This document shows positions 5,218 through 12,609 of a DNA stretch of 32,786 bases, piece after piece. A model generated the notes under the pieces. The model was not told where the DNA came from, made no database searches, and saw only the letters and a program-made list of their open reading frames with translations. The first letter of the stretch is position 1. Each line of letters starts with the position of its first letter. The stretch is from a virus. The stretch spans positions 1-32,786 of the IMG/VR virus record IMGVR_UViG_3300037488_002545, one strand, 5' to 3'. Position numbers and translations under genes: made by a program.

Positions 5218-6522
5218 ATGAGCTACCTATATAATCATTCAAAACAAAAACTTCTTTTTGAAGAGGTGTCAGATATTTCATCCTCATCCACCTTCAAGTC
5301 AGGGCCACTTAAAGATGATAAATATTTTATACTTCATCACACAGCAGGAAGAGGAAACGCAATGGATGTTATGAATATTTTGAATAACAGAAAATTAGGC
5401 GTGCAGTGGGTTATTGATCGTGACGGAAAACTTTTTAAAACTTTACCATCAGGACATAGAGGTGCTCATATCAAATCTTTTAGATCTTCAGTACCTAAAG
5501 ACCTTAACAATAGAACTTCACAAGGTGTTGAGATTATTGCTAAGAATGACTCTGATATATCAATTACACAGTGTAGAACCGCATTAAAACTAATTAAAAG
5601 TTTAGGATATCCGATGTCAAACATTTATGGACATGGAGAGGTCTCAACAAATAAATCCCCAGATGAAGGAAAAACATGTAAGGGTTATATAAAAAAATAT
5701 TGGAGCACCCCTGAGTCAAAACTTCCAGGGTCTGACGCCGCAATAGGTAAAATTGAAGATAAGAAAGGGGGGGATAACTCGAAAAAAGACTCCTCAAAAA
5801 ACGAATTTTTAGGGTTTGATTTGGATAAAATAACCGGTGGTTTAAAGGATGCTTTTGCGGGTTTATTTACCGAAGAAGAATTAAAAAATAATAAATCAAA
5901 TAAAAATCACATTGATGTTTTAATTGAGAGAGAAATTAAAAAACTAACCCTTCAAAAATTAAATGAGTCAAATACATACGGATTCGAAATTGGTAAAGTA
6001 GATTCAGGAAAAGTTGTCAAAGGCGGTGAAGATAATGAATGGGGAGGATCAATGGAACGAGCTCTTGAAATTGCAAAAATTGCAAGTGATTGTTTGGGTA
6101 AAAAAAATATCATAACGTCACAAAAAAGATCAAGGGTAAAAACCGCATCTGGTGGTGTTTCTGATCATTACATAGGAAATTTATCGGCATACGCTGTAGA
6201 TATTCGTGCCAAAGGTGAAACAGGTGATGAATTACTTGCATGTATAATGAAAAAATGGAACGGGGGTTCAAATTCTAATTATAAAGGTGGTAAATGGTTA
6301 AACGTAAATGAGGGCGGTTATAGATACCAATTTGGTTGGAGAGTACCTGACCATTACGATCACATACATGTGGGTGTAAGAAAAAAAGGGGGAAAAGTCG
6401 TTGATTCGGATAAATTACAAGATGTAATAGACAAAACAAAAAAAGGAGGAGATTCAAAAGATTCCTCAAGTATTTTCGATCTAATTTCTAAAATCGGAGA
6501 TTCAATCAAAGATTTATTTTAA
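5218..6522 (+). CDS. Two-domain endolysin: amidase plus M15-type peptidase
   Basis: A 434-residue protein with two peptidoglycan hydrolase modules. Residues about 34-165 are an N-acetylmuramoyl-L-alanine amidase (Amidase_2/PGRP) domain: FILHHTAG (His40/41), 'GVQWVIDRDGK', GHGE (His139) and DEGKTC (Asp149 or Cys154), which give the usual zinc ligands. A linker rich in Lys/Ser/Asp follows, with LTLQKLNES at 243-251. Residues about 255-388 look like a D,D/L,D-carboxypeptidase of the M15 type: SDHY (His317), AYAVDI (Asp328) and DHYDHIHVGV (His382/384). The first cuts the glycan-peptide bond and the second would cut the stem peptide. There is no signal peptide, so access would depend on the holin-like protein or on delivery in the virion. 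Confidence 0.8.
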   Translation: MSYLYNHSKQKLLFEEVSDISSSSTFKSGPLKDDKYFILHHTAGRGNAMDVMNILNNRKLGVQWVIDRDGKLFKTLPSGHRGAHIKSFRSSVPKDLNNRTSQGVEIIAKNDSDISITQCRTALKLIKSLGYPMSNIYGHGEVSTNKSPDEGKTCKGYIKKYWSTPESKLPGSDAAIGKIEDKKGGDNSKKDSSKNEFLGFDLDKITGGLKDAFAGLFTEEELKNNKSNKNHIDVLIEREIKKLTLQKLNESNTYGFEIGKVDSGKVVKGGEDNEWGGSMERALEIAKIASDCLGKKNIITSQKRSRVKTASGGVSDHYIGNLSAYAVDIRAKGETGDELLACIMKKWNGGSNSNYKGGKWLNVNEGGYRYQFGWRVPDHYDHIHVGVRKKGGKVVDSDKLQDVIDKTKKGGDSKDSSSIFDLISKIGDSIKDLF

Positions 6523-6603
6523 AAATAAATAATTTCTGTTTGACTATTTAGGAAAAAACACATATCATTTCAATAGTTCTTTGAATTTATAAATTTTTAA
6601 ATG

Positions 6604-6610
6604 TATTTAT
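6604..6610 (+). promoter_or_regulatory. TATTTAT box touching a start codon
   Basis: TATTTAT is one base from the ATG of the 48-residue gene. Transcription from here would begin at or inside the start codon, so either the transcript is leaderless or this copy is not used. Confidence 0.3.
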
Positions 6611-6611
6611 T

Positions 6612-6758
6612 ATGAGTGAAAACGAAATCGTAGAGGAATACGAATTATTTTACTACCTCGACAATAAAGGAAGAAAACTTTTCACACCAAGTGAAATTTA
6701 CGCCTCAATAAGAGCGGATTTTTTTGGTACTAAAAAAGTTTACGTCGAAAAAAATTAA
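6612..6758 (+). CDS. Small acidic/aromatic protein (48 aa)
   Basis: A 48-residue frame, MSENEIVEEYELFYYLDNKG to KKVYVEKN. It is acidic at the start, aromatic in the middle and basic at the end, with no membrane segment. 'YYLDNKGRKLFTPSEIYASIRADFFGTKKVYVE' reads like a compact folded domain with regular hydrophobic spacing, so I believe it is a real gene. I do not recognise a family. It ends about 20 bases before the promoter of the giant RNA, and a TATTTAT box abuts its start. Confidence 0.5.
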   Translation: MSENEIVEEYELFYYLDNKGRKLFTPSEIYASIRADFFGTKKVYVEKN

Positions 6759-6776
6759 AAAAAGTTCACAAAGTAC

Positions 6777-6807
6777 TTGACAGATCAAAATAAATGTCTT
6801 AACTTTG
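6777..6807 (+). promoter_or_regulatory. Bacteroidota-type promoter of the giant RNA
   Basis: TTG (6777-6779), a 20-base spacer and TAACTTTG (6800-6807) match TTG-N20-TAnnTTTG exactly. Transcription should start near 6812, just before the first hairpin of the structured RNA. Confidence 0.7.
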
Positions 6808-6811
6808 TAAA

Positions 6812-7754
6812 ACAAATCAGGAAAAGTCCTGAAACGTTCTTTGAAAAAATAGATTATCCGTTCAGGAAATACAAAAGTGTCGGTGACATTATCCACCGAG
6901 TAAATGGCAGAGAGTCCGCAGCTTAAGTGTAACTGATAAAGATATTGGGCCGTGTATAGTCCATAAAATAAACTACGAAAGTAGGATAAAGTGAGTCGGA
7001 AGTGTAACCGATTTGCGGTTTGGGTAACCGAACTTGAGTACACAAGCGGGATACCGTTTAACCTTTAGTACCGAGGGCAACGCTGTAGGGAAAGTGGTTA
7101 GATGATTAGGCGATGTGGGTCGTTTAGTTGAGGTGGGAACACCAATAGGAATAACCCGTAGGGATATTGCAAAACATGAGATTATCCGATTTCATTATTG
7201 CGTTTCCCAATATGAAAGGATACTTAAAACCGAAAGGTATGTTGATGTACGGGTGGTGCCGTTATTAACCTTGATAAACTCCTACCAAGGGGTTAATCTC
7301 GAAGTAATCTTAAAGTATGGAAATGGGGACATTTCAAGGAGTAGTTGTGTATTTCGCCGTTCAAAAGATGACGAAGCTCGTGACGAACCACTACTTCTAC
7401 AATCCACGACACAAAAACTTATGACTATTGAATTAAGTCTCATTAATTAATAAAGTAAGCAAAAGTGTTCGTCAGGTAACAGTGAAAGGTGACTACATAG
7501 TAATGAGCCGTTCATTGCACGAGAGGATCGCAAATCTTATCGTATTCTTACCAAACACCTCTAATCCCGCAAGGACTAGTTGGGGAGGCATCCTCGAAGA
7601 GAGTCGAGTAGTAAGAGAGTAACTGTTATCTCAAGGAGTGGTAGACCTAAAAGACCGTCACTGAGAAATACTTCTCAAAAGGAAGTGGATAAGAGTAGAA
7701 ACAATAATGACTCTAAAGGTTCTCACACAAACGTGTAATCTCAACGTTTTTTTT
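6812..7754 (+). ncRNA. Giant structured non-coding RNA (about 940 nt), GOLLD/ROOL-style candidate
   Basis: There is no credible coding frame, yet base composition is richer in G and C than the neighbours and the sequence folds densely by eye. AAACGTT (6832-6838) pairs with AACGTTT (7743-7749), joining the two ends just before eight Ts. Local hairpins include 6817-6832 (UCAGGA/UCCUGA), 6880-6899, 6973-6984 (GAAA loop), 6994-7013, 7132-7143 (GGAA loop), 7176-7195, 7264-7297 (10 bp), 7320-7335 (GGGA loop), 7500-7518, 7519-7543, 7593-7608 and 7662-7677. Long helices include 7057-7063/7096-7102, 7114-7120/7154-7160, 7338-7345/7390-7397, 7406-7412/7465-7472, 7475-7483/7622-7630 (9 bp) and 7545-7551/7611-7617. 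Size, phage setting and closeness to a tmRNA recall the GOLLD and ROOL classes; I could not match a consensus, so it may be a new class. Confidence 0.8.
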
Positions 7755-7778
7755 ATATAACCATTGGTAAAAAAATTC

Positions 7779-7801
7779 AGGGACGATTAGTCCCTTTTTT
7801 T
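7779..7801 (+). terminator. Intrinsic terminator downstream of the giant RNA
   Basis: AGGGAC (7779-7784) and GTCCCT (7790-7795) enclose GATTA and are followed by an unbroken T-run to 7801. It would stop plus-strand transcription that passes the first U-tract at 7747-7754. Confidence 0.85.
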
Positions 7802-7852
7802 GTGCTCTAAAATATAATATTCATACAACATTAAAATATAATTCTAATGCAT

Positions 7853-7880
7853 AAAAAAACCCCATCCGAAGATGAGGTTT
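7853..7880 (-). terminator. Intrinsic terminator of the tmRNA
   Basis: Read on the minus strand, AACCTCATC and GATGGGGTT form a 9-bp stem (one G-U pair) capped by a UUCG tetraloop, followed by a T-run. It begins six bases after the encoded CCA of the tmRNA. Confidence 0.9.
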
Positions 7881-7885
7881 ATAAT

Positions 7886-8304
7886 TGGTGGAGGCGGAGG
7901 GACTCGAACCCTCGTCCAGCTTATCCTGTCAGATAAGGACTACATGTTTAGGTTAAGGTTTTTCATACCTTCCAAAATATTTGGTTCCTATTTTGACATT
8001 GTCACCAAAAACTGTGTCGAGTTCACTTTTGTTACGGTAGCACTCTGAACGAGACCGTTGTTTTCTTTTAGAGTAAAAACCAACTCATCTACGACTTCTG
8101 TTGCTAGGTTATCTGTCTGATCGACCCCCCGTTTCCGTATCTAATTAAGCTACAGTAACTTCAGAACCTCTTAGTAAACCAAGAGTTTCCATTTTGTTTA
8201 GCACATTGCCAGTTGTTTTCTTAAGTCAGTTTTTAAAGGGATTAACTTAGTCCCTACATGCCCTTATTCCTCAGCCAATACCTGTCAAATCCAAAAACGC
8301 CCCC
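7886..8304 (-). ncRNA. ssrA: tmRNA (ribosome rescue RNA) with an unusual tag
   Basis: The 5' end GGGGGCG pairs with CGCCUCC before an encoded ACCA, giving a 7-bp acceptor stem with the G3-U70 pair that marks alanine charging. The T-arm is GAGGG-UUCGAGU-CCCUC. Pseudoknot PK1 is visible: stem AGGGA/UCCCU (8237-8241 with 8251-8255) whose loop UAAGU (8245-8249) pairs with ACUUA (8222-8226). Eleven bases on, GGC at 8210-8208 fits as the resume codon; Gly is usual in Bacteroidota. The tag frame then runs 21 codons to TAA at 8147-8145 and ends GLLRGSEVTVA. Most bacterial tags end in LAA (for example ALAA), so this degradation signal differs. tmRNA releases stalled ribosomes and tags the unfinished protein for proteolysis. 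Confidence 0.93.
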
Positions 8305-8326
8305 ATATCTTCAAAGAACTATATGA

Positions 8327-8357
8327 CAAATATAATACAAAGATTTTAATTTGACAA
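8327..8357 (-). promoter_or_regulatory. Bacteroidota-type promoter of the tmRNA
   Basis: On the minus strand TTG (8357-8355), 20 bases, then TATATTTG (8334-8327). It has the same architecture as the giant RNA promoter and leaves about 18 bases of leader before the mature 5' end at 8304. Confidence 0.7.
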
Positions 8358-8359
8358 TA

Positions 8360-8366
8360 TATTTAT
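8360..8366 (+). promoter_or_regulatory. TATTTAT box upstream of the 377-aa gene
   Basis: TATTTAT ends 6 bases before the ATG at 8373 and lies back to back with the tmRNA promoter. A transcript from here would have almost no leader. Confidence 0.4.
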
Positions 8367-8372
8367 AAATAT

Positions 8373-9506
8373 ATGAAAAAAAGACTATTGATAGAAGAAG
8401 ATATTGATGAAATAGAGGATTTTAGAAAAATTCTACTTTTAAATAAAAAAAAGTTAGATTATCGTAATGTTATGTTTCTTGATGAACATAGAAATGACTT
8501 TGATGGGATTATTGAAGTAACCGCACATGGTCTATTGTTTCATTTCGATGATTTAGAACAGTTTTTAAAGTTCTTCTTTCAAGAGACATATAAAGAAGGT
8601 AGTGATAGTGAGTGGGAGGCCGTAAATTATGATAGAATGTATTACGGTCAGTGGGACTTTTATAGTGAGTGTCAAGATAGAGCATATGATGATTGGAGTG
8701 AAGGATATACCTTAGGTTACTTTTGTGATTCTGCAATTTTAAAACTAAAACAACTTGCCGAGTTTTTAGATCCATCTACAAGTAAAGATTTTATACGAAG
8801 AAATAACGGTCGTATGACTTATGATGGTGGAGGTGATCTACCAACGATATTAGATAAATTTTTTCCTGGACTTGGGGATCAGATTGATGAAATCGTTTGT
8901 ATGGGAAAAGATCGTGCGGTTTCTAGTGGGGCTCAAGAATTAATAGAAGAAACTTATTGTAATGGTCTAAAACAATTTGGTATTGAAAATTGGGGTAAGA
9001 GTGTCCTTACAAATTGTTTTAGAACCTACTTTATAAGTTGGGGAAATCTTGTTCAGATGTATATTGACACTAGTGATTTTGAAGAGCCATTATTAGATAC
9101 AATGTTTAGAGTCATAGAAAGAGGTTTTAGTAATCACCCACCTGAGTATTACGAAATTGAGTATAATGTTTGGGATAATGAAATTTTTGAAAGTGAAACT
9201 TGTCAAAAACTTGAAGATCTGATGGATGAGTATATTGAAAAAGCTCATGAAGAAATTAATTCAGATTATATTGAAGTAATGAAAAAAATTGGAAATCTTG
9301 GATTATTTAATTTTACACAATTGCCTGATAAAAAACATTACCTTAAAGTTGAAAAGGTAGATCCTGAAACACTTAAAGTAACATTTAGAGTTGGAACCTC
9401 AAGACAAAATTGGAACTCTAAAATGGGTGTTTCTGATGTTGATAGTGTGATTGCAATGGCAACTCAGCCAGGTTTATTTGACCCGACTGAGTATAGAATT
9501 AGTTAA
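8373..9506 (+). CDS. Unknown acidic protein (377 aa)
   Basis: I do not recognise this protein. It is acidic and aromatic with many Asp, Glu, Tyr and Trp residues (for example 'DSEWEAVNYDRMYYGQWDFY') and has no signal peptide or membrane helix. The N-terminus, MKKRLLIEEDIDEIEDFRKILLL, resembles the helical openings of several other proteins in this window. A Gly-rich turn (TYDGGGDLP) lies near residue 150, and the C-terminal 60 residues look like a small alpha-beta domain. It converges on the minus-strand peptidase gene with two bases between the stops. It stands between tmRNA and the peptidase but is transcribed in the opposite direction, so no shared role can be inferred. Confidence 0.65.
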   Translation: MKKRLLIEEDIDEIEDFRKILLLNKKKLDYRNVMFLDEHRNDFDGIIEVTAHGLLFHFDDLEQFLKFFFQETYKEGSDSEWEAVNYDRMYYGQWDFYSECQDRAYDDWSEGYTLGYFCDSAILKLKQLAEFLDPSTSKDFIRRNNGRMTYDGGGDLPTILDKFFPGLGDQIDEIVCMGKDRAVSSGAQELIEETYCNGLKQFGIENWGKSVLTNCFRTYFISWGNLVQMYIDTSDFEEPLLDTMFRVIERGFSNHPPEYYEIEYNVWDNEIFESETCQKLEDLMDEYIEKAHEEINSDYIEVMKKIGNLGLFNFTQLPDKKHYLKVEKVDPETLKVTFRVGTSRQNWNSKMGVSDVDSVIAMATQPGLFDPTEYRIS

Positions 9507-9508
9507 TG

Positions 9509-10546
9509 TTAGTCCAAAGAATAACGGTTCTTTAAAATCTCGTATAATTTATACCCATCTTCATCGTCAATAAAGAATCTATTTTCGTCGTAGAAGTCAA
9601 GAATTATTATCCCATCCTTATCCTCAATAACATCAATCGATGTTAGTTGGTGAACATCATCGTAAAATGGATTTTCATCCTCATCCTCAATATTAAACAA
9701 CGTTGAGTTATGGTTGTAGGTTATGGGTTCGTATTTGAATTCATATTTTTTTAATCCTAAAGAATTAACCATGTTTAACCCCGCCTGAATAGCCCTCTCA
9801 ACATCACTCACACAAACAAATTCATTCGCGGTATGCATGTTGTAATATCCGCAAGACATGTTAATACAAGAAACATCTGATTTTTTTTTCAGTTGCATTA
9901 CATCCGTATATGGGTGAGATCCTAAAGTCATTTCACAACCAAAGGCGTCTTTAATCGCTCTGTGAGCTAAAGAACCAAATTCACCACCTTTCTCAAATAA
10001 ACGAACACCCGAACATACCTCGGTAATTAAATGGTCACCAGGTGCGTCGTATTGACAAATATAACCGACATCTTTTAAAAACTCTTCGTTGCATTTTGCA
10101 GATCCGTGACATCCAGTTTCTTCAGAAACAAAAAGACCAATTTTAACCTTTTCAAGTTTTTCTAAAAGATTCAAACAAATGAATATCCCACACTTGTCAT
10201 CACCACCAATACCGGTTGGAAACCCGTTATCGTCATAACCTTTGAGGGCATAAACCGATTGATCCCCAAAAGATTTACCAAAGGTATTTGGTCTAACAAC
10301 CTCAACTAATTCTACATTGATTTTTGGTATGATTTCGTGAACTGTGTCTGTGTGTGCCACAAACATCGGGTAGAATTCACCGTCATCTAATATACCCTTT
10401 GTGATATAGATATTTTTGTGTTCATCACAATCTACTTTAATACCGTCCCCATTTAATTCACCTAATAGGTAATTAACCATTAATTCTTCTTTGTAGGTTT
10501 TGGATGGTACAGAAAGAAGTTCTTTAAACTTATCTAAATTTATCAT
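9509..10546 (-). CDS. Zinc metallopeptidase (M20/M28/M42-type aminopeptidase)
   Basis: A 345-residue di-zinc peptidase. The metal and catalytic residues are in family order: AHTDTVHE (His65, Asp67), GIGGDDKCG (Asp116/117), SEETGCHGS (Glu142/143), YDAPGDH (Asp168) and a late HTANE (His238). The spacing best fits tripeptidase or aminopeptidase members, which trim short peptides in the cytoplasm. There is no signal peptide. The C-terminal tail (about 280-345) is very acidic. The gene lies 35 bases downstream of the ClpC-like gene on the same strand, so the pair is probably co-transcribed: the unfoldase would feed a protease and this enzyme would finish the peptides. That coupling is inference. 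Confidence 0.8.
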   Translation of the reverse strand: MINLDKFKELLSVPSKTYKEELMVNYLLGELNGDGIKVDCDEHKNIYITKGILDDGEFYPMFVAHTDTVHEIIPKINVELVEVVRPNTFGKSFGDQSVYALKGYDDNGFPTGIGGDDKCGIFICLNLLEKLEKVKIGLFVSEETGCHGSAKCNEEFLKDVGYICQYDAPGDHLITEVCSGVRLFEKGGEFGSLAHRAIKDAFGCEMTLGSHPYTDVMQLKKKSDVSCINMSCGYYNMHTANEFVCVSDVERAIQAGLNMVNSLGLKKYEFKYEPITYNHNSTLFNIEDEDENPFYDDVHQLTSIDVIEDKDGIIILDFYDENRFFIDDEDGYKLYEILKNRYSLD

Positions 10547-10581: not shown

Positions 10582-12609
10582 TTATTTAATAACTTTTTTT
10601 TCTCTTTTTTTCTTAACTTCAATTTCTACCTTATCGTCCACAACAATTAGATTGTAAGTTTTGTTTTCTTCTACCTCATCCATCAAAATTTTTTCTGAAA
10701 TAAAATCCTCAATATTTTCTTGGATCGCTCTTTTTATTGGTCGTGCACCGTAAGTTTCATCAAAACCAACCTTAGATACAAATTCAATCAGAGAGTCTGA
10801 ATATGTAAAATTGTAATTTTTTTCTTTAACTCTTTTAACCAAAGTATCGAGCTCAAGTTTTGTAATTTTGTTAATATCTTCTTTTTGTAGAGAGTTAAAA
10901 ATAACAACATCATCAATTCTGTTTAGAAATTCAGGTGCGAAAAATTTACTTAATTCTTTTTTCAATACATCTCTTTTTTGTTCTTCTGCAACCGCAGAAC
11001 TTGCGACACTTTTAAACCCAACACCTGTTCCAAAATCTTGTAGTTTTTTTACACCAATATTTGAGGTCATTATGATTAGACAATTTTTGAAATTTATTTT
11101 TCTTCCCAAAGCGTCAGTTAAATGTCCGTCATCTAACATTTGAAGAAGTGTTGAAAATATGTCTTTATGTGCCTTTTCAATTTCATCAAATAAAATTACA
11201 GAGTATGGTTTATTTTTTACTTGTTCAGTCAATTGGCCACCCTCATCATGCCCAACGTATCCTGGAGGTGATCCAATTAATCTTGAAATGGTGTGTTTCT
11301 CTTGATATTCACTCATATCAACCCGAATCAAACTATCCTCACTCCCAAATATTTCTTTAGCCAATTGTTTGGCTAAAAATGTTTTACCAACACCTGTTGA
11401 ACCTAAAAATATGAAAGATCCTATTGGTCTATTTGGGTCTTTAATACCAATTCTATTTCTCCTAATTGCTTTTGATATTTTAACAACCGCATCATTTTGA
11501 CCAATAACTTTAGAATTTAAATTGTCCGATAAATTTATCAATGACGTTTTTTCGTCCACATTTATCTTTGATACAGGAATTTTAGTCATATTTGATACCA
11601 CTTCATAAACAAGATCTTCAGGAATTGGTCTTTTACTACTTGTTAGATATTCCTCAAATTTTTTCTTTTCTTCATCTAACTTACCTAAAACCATTCTTTC
11701 TTTATCACGTAATTCCGCAGCTTGTTCGTAATTTTGTTTTTTAATAACTTCCATCTTTTGTCTTTTAATTTCGGCGGCTTCAGATTTTAAATCCTCAATA
11801 ATTTCAGGAAGTTTGATATCAATTTGCATTCTTGACCCAACCTCATCTAAAATATCAAAGGCTTTATCAGGAAATTCACGATCAGTGACATATCGATCTG
11901 CCAACTCGACAAATAATTTTAAAGTATTATCATCATAAGTTACTTTGTGATGTTCTTCATATTTAGATTTACTTTGTTTTAATATTTCTAATGTTTCTTC
12001 TTTTGAGGATGGGTCAACGATTATTTTTTGAAATCTTCTTTCTAACGCCCCATCCTTCTCAAAACTTTTTCTGTATTCGTCTAATGTTGTTGCACCAATA
12101 CATTGAATTTCCCCTCGTGATAACGCAGGTTTAAAGATATTCGACGCATCCAACGATCCAGAACTGTTTCCGGCGCCAACCATTGTATGAATCTCATCTA
12201 TAAAAATTATGATGTTTGAGTTAGTTTGAAGTTCTTCAATAATAACTTTCATTCTCTCCTCAAATTGACCACGATATTTTGTACCCGCAACAAGAGAGTT
12301 AATGTCTAAACTTAAAATTCTTTTATCCATTAAATTTTTTGGACATTCTCCATCGTGAATTAACATTGCAAGACCCTCAACAATTGCAGTTTTTCCACAA
12401 CCTGGTTCACCAATAATAATTGGATTATTTTTTTTACGTCTAGACAGAATTTGTGCAATTCTGATTATTTCTTTTTTTCTACCAACAACAGGATCAAGTT
12501 TACCTTGTTCTGCAAGTTTATTTAAATCTTTACTAAAATTATCCAAAACCGGTGTTCCCGAATCACTTTTCTTTTTACCCTTATCATTATCATCTACGAA
12601 ATCTAACAT
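10582..12609 (-). CDS. clpC: ClpC-like AAA+ unfoldase without the N-domain
   Basis: A 675-residue double-ATPase of the Clp/Hsp100 class. D1 has Walker A GEPGCGKT (67-74) and Walker B IIIFIDEIH (133-141). A middle region holds a UVR motif (YEQAAELRDKE, about 294-304), which marks ClpC rather than ClpA or ClpB. D2 has GSTGVGKT (403-410), VILFDEIE (471-478) and the sensor region SNIGV. The stretch DFGTGVGF contains the VGF tripeptide ClpC uses to dock on ClpP and is typical of flavobacterial ClpC, suggesting a host origin. Cellular ClpC has about 150 more N-terminal residues that bind adaptors; here the protein opens with a short acidic/basic leader and goes straight to 'LDNFSKDLNKLAEQGKLDPVVGR'. 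No ClpP gene is in the window, so host ClpP is the likely partner. Confidence 0.9.
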   Translation of the reverse strand: MLDFVDDNDKGKKKSDSGTPVLDNFSKDLNKLAEQGKLDPVVGRKKEIIRIAQILSRRKKNNPIIIGEPGCGKTAIVEGLAMLIHDGECPKNLMDKRILSLDINSLVAGTKYRGQFEERMKVIIEELQTNSNIIIFIDEIHTMVGAGNSSGSLDASNIFKPALSRGEIQCIGATTLDEYRKSFEKDGALERRFQKIIVDPSSKEETLEILKQSKSKYEEHHKVTYDDNTLKLFVELADRYVTDREFPDKAFDILDEVGSRMQIDIKLPEIIEDLKSEAAEIKRQKMEVIKKQNYEQAAELRDKERMVLGKLDEEKKKFEEYLTSSKRPIPEDLVYEVVSNMTKIPVSKINVDEKTSLINLSDNLNSKVIGQNDAVVKISKAIRRNRIGIKDPNRPIGSFIFLGSTGVGKTFLAKQLAKEIFGSEDSLIRVDMSEYQEKHTISRLIGSPPGYVGHDEGGQLTEQVKNKPYSVILFDEIEKAHKDIFSTLLQMLDDGHLTDALGRKINFKNCLIIMTSNIGVKKLQDFGTGVGFKSVASSAVAEEQKRDVLKKELSKFFAPEFLNRIDDVVIFNSLQKEDINKITKLELDTLVKRVKEKNYNFTYSDSLIEFVSKVGFDETYGARPIKRAIQENIEDFISEKILMDEVEENKTYNLIVVDDKVEIEVKKKREKKVIK

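What the first reader, a model, noticed from the sequence alone, without database searches (positions are those of the whole stretch)
6812..7754. Giant structured RNA of about 940 nt with its own promoter, no coding content, beside a tmRNA
Seen: an exact TTG-N20-TAnnTTTG promoter, a helix joining the two ends (6832-6838 with 7743-7749) that runs into eight Ts, at least a dozen local hairpins (three capped by GNRA loops) and several long-range helices of 6-9 bp, notably 7475-7483/7622-7630 and 7545-7551/7611-7617. Known: GOLLD and ROOL are giant ornate phage RNAs often near tRNA genes. Inference: this is either a divergent Bacteroidota-phage member or a new class. This is the strongest candidate for an undescribed element in the window.
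Basis: partly seen in the sequence, partly recalled or inferred. Interest (0 to 1): 0.92.

Follow-up and report, generated by a model that had tools for sequence, protein, structure and literature searches.

The report
Phage GOLLD RNA with boxA-like leader
The 940-base stretch is a full-length copy of a known giant phage RNA, GOLLD, whose relatives self-assemble into a hollow RNA cage; the new point is that its transcript, like that of the neighbouring tmRNA, begins with the same boxA-like signal that heads ribosomal RNA transcripts in several Bacteroidota.

Summary
The RNA is real and it is GOLLD, not a new class. Rfam RF02032 matches 7337-7747 end to end (416/416 positions, 323.8 bits; gathering score 150). 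The rest, about 6812-7336, is GOLLD's less conserved 5' domain. GOLLD also occurs in 16 of 50 related virus records at gathering score. An alignment of 87 homologues (mean identity 73%) gives 39 canonical pairs with significant covariation, 16 of them in the 5' domain that Rfam does not model; they include the pair I equate with an intermolecular cage contact (bridge B7). No reading frame is conserved. The tmRNA (7886-8304, minus strand) is genuine and lies convergently downstream of GOLLD in 10 of 11 relatives examined.

Two corrections: the 'closing helix' 6832-6838/7743-7749 is refuted (7744-7749 pairs with 7729-7734 as GOLLD's last hairpin, which doubles as terminator), and ROOL is not supported.

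One addition I have not found described: GTTCTTTGA is in 98 of 99 GOLLD leaders of this group, mostly 26-28 nt after the -7 box, also before the tmRNA and in rRNA leaders of several Bacteroidota. I read it as a boxA antitermination signal; inferred, untested. The Bacteroidota host is also inferred.

The parts
6777..6807 (+). Bacteroidota-type promoter TTG-N20-TAACTTTG of the GOLLD gene
   Evidence: exact match; a TTG-N19-21-TAnnTTTG match upstream in 94 of 99 homologues
6817..6831 (+). small leader hairpin right after the inferred start
   Evidence: predicted in MFE and centroid folds; poorly kept as aligned (57% canonical), so weakly supported
6836..6845 (+). boxA-like element GTTCTTTGAA in the GOLLD leader
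   Evidence: 98 of 99 leaders carry GTTCTTTGA; 26-28 nt after the -7 box in 79 of 99 distinct leaders; same word in Bacteroidota 16S rRNA leaders
6851..7336 (+). GOLLD 5' (cap) domain, not modelled by Rfam
   Evidence: 16 covarying pairs; its profile finds huge phages LR745206 (1.8e-64) and LR756502 (2.9e-53) and, weakly, Acinetobacter phage GOLLDs (2.4e-4, 3.8e-4)
7337..7747 (+). GOLLD conserved 3' domain (RF02032)
   Evidence: 323.8 bits, model 1-416 of 416
7411..7455 (+). variable linker of GOLLD; no tRNA in it here
   Evidence: lower conservation (0.60-0.68); no tRNA found; the homologous linker is disordered inside the env-38 cage (PMC12286853)
7459..7460 (+). one side of the kissing contact equated with bridge B7 (J13/15)
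   Evidence: 7459-7531 G-C in 87/87; 7460-7530 GC55/CG31 of 87
7530..7531 (+). other side of the same contact (loop L20)
   Evidence: PMC12286853 describes B7 as L20 with J13/15
7475..7483 (+). 5' strand of the long-range helix with 7622-7630
   Evidence: 99% canonical, 9 of 9 pairs with double changes
7622..7630 (+). 3' strand of the long-range helix with 7475-7483
7488..7492 (+). 5' strand of a pseudoknot helix with 7658-7662, crossing the long-range helix
   Evidence: canonical in all 86 sequences with letters; 7491-7659 and 7492-7658 significant
7658..7662 (+). 3' strand of the pseudoknot helix
7729..7754 (+). last GOLLD hairpin plus eight Ts: intrinsic terminator
   Evidence: 7732-7746 and 7733-7745 among the strongest covarying pairs
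7886..8304 (-). tmRNA gene, convergent to GOLLD
   Evidence: RF00023 111.9 bits; same place in 10 of 11 relatives
8310..8319 (-). boxA-like GTTCTTTGAA, 5 nt before the tmRNA
   Evidence: leader printed
8327..8357 (-). tmRNA promoter TTG-N20-TATATTTG, same type as GOLLD's

Best explanation
The element is a complete GOLLD RNA of a T4-like phage that probably infects Bacteroidota. Host RNA polymerase starts at about 6812-6815. A boxA-like leader element (6836-6845) is inferred to load the host NusB/S10 antitermination complex, so that a 940-nt untranslated, heavily structured RNA escapes premature (Rho-type) termination, as rRNA does. The transcript folds into a 5' cap domain and a 3' ring domain with a flexible linker and stops at its own last hairpin plus eight Ts. 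By homology, monomers then self-assemble through kissing loops into a hollow RNA cage (14-mer in the env-38 relative), probably late in infection, next to the phage's lysis amidase gene and its own tmRNA. What the cage holds is unknown; capture of ribosomes or tRNAs is the published line of thought. Shown here: family identity, fold by covariation, conservation of cage-contact bases, promoter, terminator, conserved boxA-like word, synteny with tmRNA. Inferred: antitermination, cage assembly in this phage, timing, cargo, host.
For: RF02032 end-to-end match; 16 of 50 related virus records over cut-off and 12 of 12 further loci. 39 canonical covarying pairs among 42 significant ones, in both domains. 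Kissing pair 7460-7530 with GC/CG exchange, L21b GC dinucleotide in 87/87, L21a loop GCAA-type in 70 and UCGA-type in 15, matching contacts described in PMC12286853. 5' domain shared with huge phages and, weakly but above background, with Acinetobacter phage GOLLDs. Terminator hairpin covariation. boxA-like word: 3 in window against 0.21 expected; 98 of 99 leaders; 191 in 2.86 Mb against mean 11.2 (max 83) for 60 permuted words, 173 within 90 nt of TAnnTTTG against mean 0.8 (a set enriched for GOLLD loci); in 16S leaders of Algoriphagus, Litoribacter, Chitinophaga, Runella, Pseudarcicella; 20 of 25 GOLLDs lacking the exact 5' search motif carry it too.
Against: No transcript, assembly or antitermination was measured. 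Of the 42 significant pairs, two (both at 7697) are not canonical and one (7522-7540) falls just under the 0.8 mark. The null is my own simplification of R-scape, so E-values are approximate. The boxA reading rests on sequence alone; most Flavobacteriales rRNA leaders examined show GTTCATTGA or a looser variant. The names L20, J13/15, L21a and L21b were matched by position, not by aligning to the solved structure.
Confidence: 0.9

Rival explanations
1. GTTCTTTGA is not boxA but a phage DNA element (late-promoter part or activator site) or simply part of GOLLD's fold.
For: It sits at a nearly fixed distance from the -7 box (26-28 nt in 79 of 99), as a promoter-linked element could.
Against: The same word heads chromosomal 16S rRNA leaders of several Bacteroidota at varying distance from the promoter, some host tmRNA leaders (L407, L412, L418), and phage tmRNA and tRNA units with other folds.
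Confidence: 0.2
2. The boxA copy acts in trans: abundant GOLLD transcripts titrate NusB/S10 and so lower host rRNA synthesis during infection.
For: The element lies inside the inferred transcript; GOLLD is reported to rise during lysis (PMC12286853).
Against: In the tmRNA unit the element lies upstream of the mature RNA (5 nt before it), which suggests a leader role in cis; the GOLLD leader may also be processed off.
Confidence: 0.1
3. A new class of giant RNA, unrelated to GOLLD.
For: The 5' half (about 6812-7336) has no Rfam match of its own.
Against: The 3' half is RF02032 over its full length; the 5'-domain profile finds the 5' regions of other phage GOLLDs; the two-domain layout equals the published one.
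Confidence: 0.02
4. A protein-coding or decayed coding region.
For: ORFs of 40-112 aa exist mechanically.
Against: Five such frames are open in only 2, 6, 13, 19 and 25 of 87 homologues; helices, not codons, are kept.
Confidence: 0.01

Closest known systems
GOLLD RNA (Rfam RF02032; env-38 GOLLD cryo-EM 14-mer, PMC12286853)
   Same: Full 3' domain, 5' domain, variable linker, length over 800 nt, phage genome near tRNA/tmRNA genes, cage-contact bases (B7, L21a, L21b) kept.
   Different: About 940 nt against 833; no tRNA in the linker; Bacteroidota-type promoter; boxA-like leader; the neighbour is a tmRNA.
GOLLD of Acinetobacter phages (KM672662, PX050566)
   Same: RF02032 at 207-218 bits; core of the 5' domain recognisable.
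   Different: Lies inside long tRNA arrays; no boxA-like word in the fetched 6-kb stretches.
GOLLD of huge uncultured phages LR745206 and LR756502
   Same: Both domains; LR745206 has AGTTCTTTGAAATATTG right before the 5' domain.
   Different: Genomes of 635-642 kb; beside tRNA genes; no GTTCTTTGA in the LR756502 stretch.
ROOL RNA
   Same: Giant phage RNA that forms a cage (PMC12286853).
   Different: No Rfam match even at E<=1.
rRNA boxA / NusB-S10 antitermination (PMC4807359, PMC5725501)
   Same: Short conserved element in the leader of a long untranslated RNA.
   Different: Here in phage RNAs; activity not tested.

Membership tests
GOLLD (RF02032) | Covariance-model score above the gathering threshold over the whole model | tested here: met
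   323.8 bits against 150, positions 1-416 of 416
GOLLD (RF02032) | Less conserved 5' domain before the 3' domain; total length often over 800 nt | tested here: met
   5' domain about 6851-7336 with 16 covarying pairs, homologous to 5' parts of other phage GOLLDs; total about 940 nt
GOLLD (RF02032) | Variable linker | tested here: met
   conservation drops to 0.60-0.68 at 7406-7465
GOLLD (RF02032) | Kissing contact L20 with J13/15 (intermolecular bridge B7) | tested here: met
   7459-7531 and 7460-7530 paired with GC/CG exchange, 86 of 87 at the variable pair; loop names matched by position only
GOLLD (RF02032) | Symmetric kissing loops L21a and L21b | tested here: inconclusive
   L21b GC in 87/87; L21a GCAA-type in 70, UCGA-type in 15, AT in 2: compatible, but self-pairing is not provable from sequence
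GOLLD (RF02032) | Encoded by phages or prophages, often near tRNA genes | tested here: met
   virus record with T4-like portal, terminase and capsid genes; tmRNA adjacent; tRNAs near it in several relatives
GOLLD (RF02032) | Homo-14-mer nanocage; expression rising at lysis | not testable with these tools
   needs cryo-EM or mass photometry, and RNA-seq of infection
ROOL | Match to the Rfam ROOL model | tested here: not met
   no ROOL match at E<=1 in 6500-8400
OLE, HEARO, RNase P RNA | Match to their Rfam models | tested here: not met
   no match at E<=1 in 6500-8400
boxA antitermination element | Sequence match to rRNA-leader boxA of the presumed host group | tested here: met
   GTTCTTTGA in 16S leaders of five Bacteroidota genera; GTTCATTGA or a variant in others
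boxA antitermination element | NusB-S10 binding and read-through of terminators | not testable with these tools
   bench assay needed
tmRNA (RF00023) | Model score, encoded CCA, G3-U70, tag frame | tested here: met
   111.9 bits over 1-374; ends CCGCCUCCACCA and G3 faces U70 by inspection; frame METLGLLRGSEVTVA-stop

The most novel reading that the evidence does not exclude
Phages of this Bacteroidota-type group put the host's rRNA boxA signal at the head of their stable-RNA units (GOLLD, tmRNA, some tRNA units, and an undescribed RNA of about 150-170 nt), so that the giant cage RNA is made by the rRNA-type antitermination machinery; boxA would then be a handle for finding further phage non-coding RNAs.
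Probability: 0.6. Interest if true: 0.55.

Novelty: new member of a known kind. Interest (0 to 1): 0.4.

Why it matters
GOLLD is one of the few natural RNAs known to build a protein-free cage, and its function is open. This phage group supplies dozens of full-length homologues at about 73% identity, good material for covariation of the poorly modelled 5' domain. The boxA-like leader, if functional, explains how a phage completes a long untranslated RNA without early termination and ties GOLLD expression to the rRNA machinery in a directly testable way.

Tried and rejected
End-to-end closing helix: rejected by covariation. Coding content: rejected. ROOL, OLE, HEARO, RNase P: no match. Copies in cellular genomes: the exact 18-base 5' motif is absent from genome contigs, so the host could not be fixed that way. 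A second distant search of phages, with L094:1-1907 (3' domain and flank only), found nothing. Papers holding both GOLLD and boxA: only unrelated plant papers. The first alignment mixed strands and was redone. The leader hairpin 6817-6831 is not kept well as aligned (57%), so I do not rely on it. The fixed-spacing promoter pattern alone is not above chance in the window (3 against 1.45); its weight comes from conservation.

Full report
What was checked. The stretch 6812-7754 was tested as DNA, as RNA and against relatives. Rfam finds exactly two families in the window: GOLLD (RF02032) at 7337-7747, plus strand, 323.8 bits, all 416 model positions; and tmRNA (RF00023) at 7886-8304, minus strand, 111.9 bits. 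ARAGORN alone missed the tmRNA. No ROOL, OLE, HEARO or RNase P match appears in 6500-8400 even at E<=1.

Where it lies. The window is a 32.8-kb virus record. Its proteins include a T4-type portal (Pfam Portal_T4), a T4-type terminase, a major capsid protein, an amidase/endolysin just upstream of GOLLD (5218-6522), a peptidase and a ClpA-like AAA+ protein. Among 50 related virus records found through the terminase, 16 hold GOLLD over the gathering score; many of the others are fragments. In 10 of 11 relatives examined the tmRNA lies convergently downstream of GOLLD; tRNA genes lie near GOLLD in several other relatives.

Structure. An 18-base 5'-domain motif recovers at least 119 stretches of viral contigs. 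From these and earlier loci I aligned 87 homologues (mean pairwise identity 73%). A G-test covariation score with APC correction was compared with 10 alignments simulated on the FastTree tree, a simplified R-scape of my own. 42 pairs pass E<=0.05; 39 are canonical in at least 80% of sequences. Sixteen lie in the 5' domain. A pseudoknot 7488-7492/7658-7662 crosses the first helix. The single-sequence fold is more stable than shuffles (z = -3.06, 20 shuffles). ORFs inside are not conserved.

Cage contacts. Kretsch et al. (PMC12286853) solved env-38 GOLLD as a hollow 14-mer: 5' domain the cap, 3' domain the ring, linker disordered inside, with contacts including L20 with J13/15 (B7) and the symmetric loops L21a and L21b. 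Here 7459-7531 is G-C in 87 of 87 and 7460-7530 is GC or CG in 86 of 87, a pairing not nested with the long-range helix; I equate it with B7 by position. L21b keeps GC in 87/87; L21a is GCAA-type in 70 and UCGA-type in 15. A CUAC-GAAA-GUAG hairpin is kept in the 5' domain and recalls their L11a (GAAA). These facts support, but do not show, cage assembly in this phage.

5' domain. A profile of 6836-7330 finds the GOLLD leaders of huge phages LR745206 (E 1.8e-64) and LR756502 (2.9e-53), and weak hits at the right place in two Acinetobacter phage GOLLDs (2.4e-4, 3.8e-4), against a best negative of 7.1 among 36 bacterial loci. The 5' half is therefore GOLLD's own 5' domain, not a new module.

The boxA-like leader. 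GTTCTTTGAA occurs three times in the window against 0.21 expected: before the 48-aa ORF (6576), in the GOLLD leader (6836) and 5 nt before the tmRNA (8310-8319, minus). Of 99 full-length relatives 98 carry GTTCTTTGA in the leader; in 79 of 99 distinct leaders it lies 26-28 nt after the -7 box. That set was collected with a 5'-domain motif; among loci collected with a 3'-domain pattern and lacking that motif, 20 of 25 carry it and two more have GTTCTTTAA. Over 262 viral loci the 10-mer occurs 191 times against a mean of 11.2 (maximum 83) for 60 permutations, and 173 copies lie within 90 nt downstream of a TAnnTTTG box. This count is inflated by the choice of GOLLD loci: of 147 distinct sites at least 96 are GOLLD and 9 tmRNA, others precede tRNAs or ORFs. 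In Bacteroidota chromosomes GTTCTTTGA lies between promoter and 16S rRNA in Algoriphagus, Litoribacter, Chitinophaga, Runella and Pseudarcicella; Paradesertivirga has GTTCTTTAA; Chryseobacterium, Nonlabens and Tenacibaculum have GTTCATTGA; Parabacteroides and Petrimonas show neither. A few host tmRNA leaders have it too. Since boxA in rRNA leaders loads NusB-S10 and counters Rho (abstracts of PMC4807359 and PMC5725501), the simplest reading is that the phage uses it to complete long untranslated RNAs. I found no paper linking GOLLD and boxA in the library searched.

Host and function. The host is inferred from promoter type and boxA-like word only; no cellular copy was found. The function of GOLLD is open in the literature: expression rises in lysis, ribosomes were reported to bind in pull-downs (PMC12286853), and in one Lactobacillus brevis prophage it was dispensable for phage production (as cited in PMC7567579). 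I therefore commit to 'cage-forming GOLLD, made late through a boxA-type leader', with cargo unknown.

Verdict. A genuine, full-length GOLLD RNA: a new member of a known kind. The added value is covariation support for the 5' domain and cage contacts in one large phage group, the correction of the end helix, and the boxA-like leader, a hypothesis with good sequence support.

Noticed in passing
L160:3235-3400 (also L100, L126, L141, L144, L172, L454-L475): Structured RNA candidate of about 150-170 nt with motif GTCTAGGTCCGTAGGGCT...GAGGAAAGTGACTACGGG in 31 viral contigs, boxA-led in 12 of 22 distinct copies and just upstream of GOLLD in several; 17 predicted pairs show double changes; no Rfam 15 match in L160. 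GAGGAAAGT recalls RNase P CR-I, a lead only. Absent from the window.
   Followed up: partly
7886-8304 (-): Phage tmRNA whose tag appears to end in ...GLLRGSEVTVA rather than the usual ALAA; the frame looks kept in relatives read by eye. The phage also encodes a ClpA-like AAA+ protein (10582-12609, minus), so tag and unfoldase might be matched.
   Followed up: partly
6612-6758 (+): 48-aa ORF with a boxA-like word 26 nt upstream (6576-6585); a similar short ORF stands before GOLLD in some relatives (L084, L089).
   Followed up: no
7780-7802 (+): Second hairpin GGGAC-GATTA-GTCCC followed by seven Ts, a likely back-up terminator downstream of GOLLD; GGGAC recurs at this place in most relatives.
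   Followed up: no
9509-10546 (-): Peptidase of PHROG 4191 with weak similarity to M42 aminopeptidases, below Pfam's cut-off.
   Followed up: no
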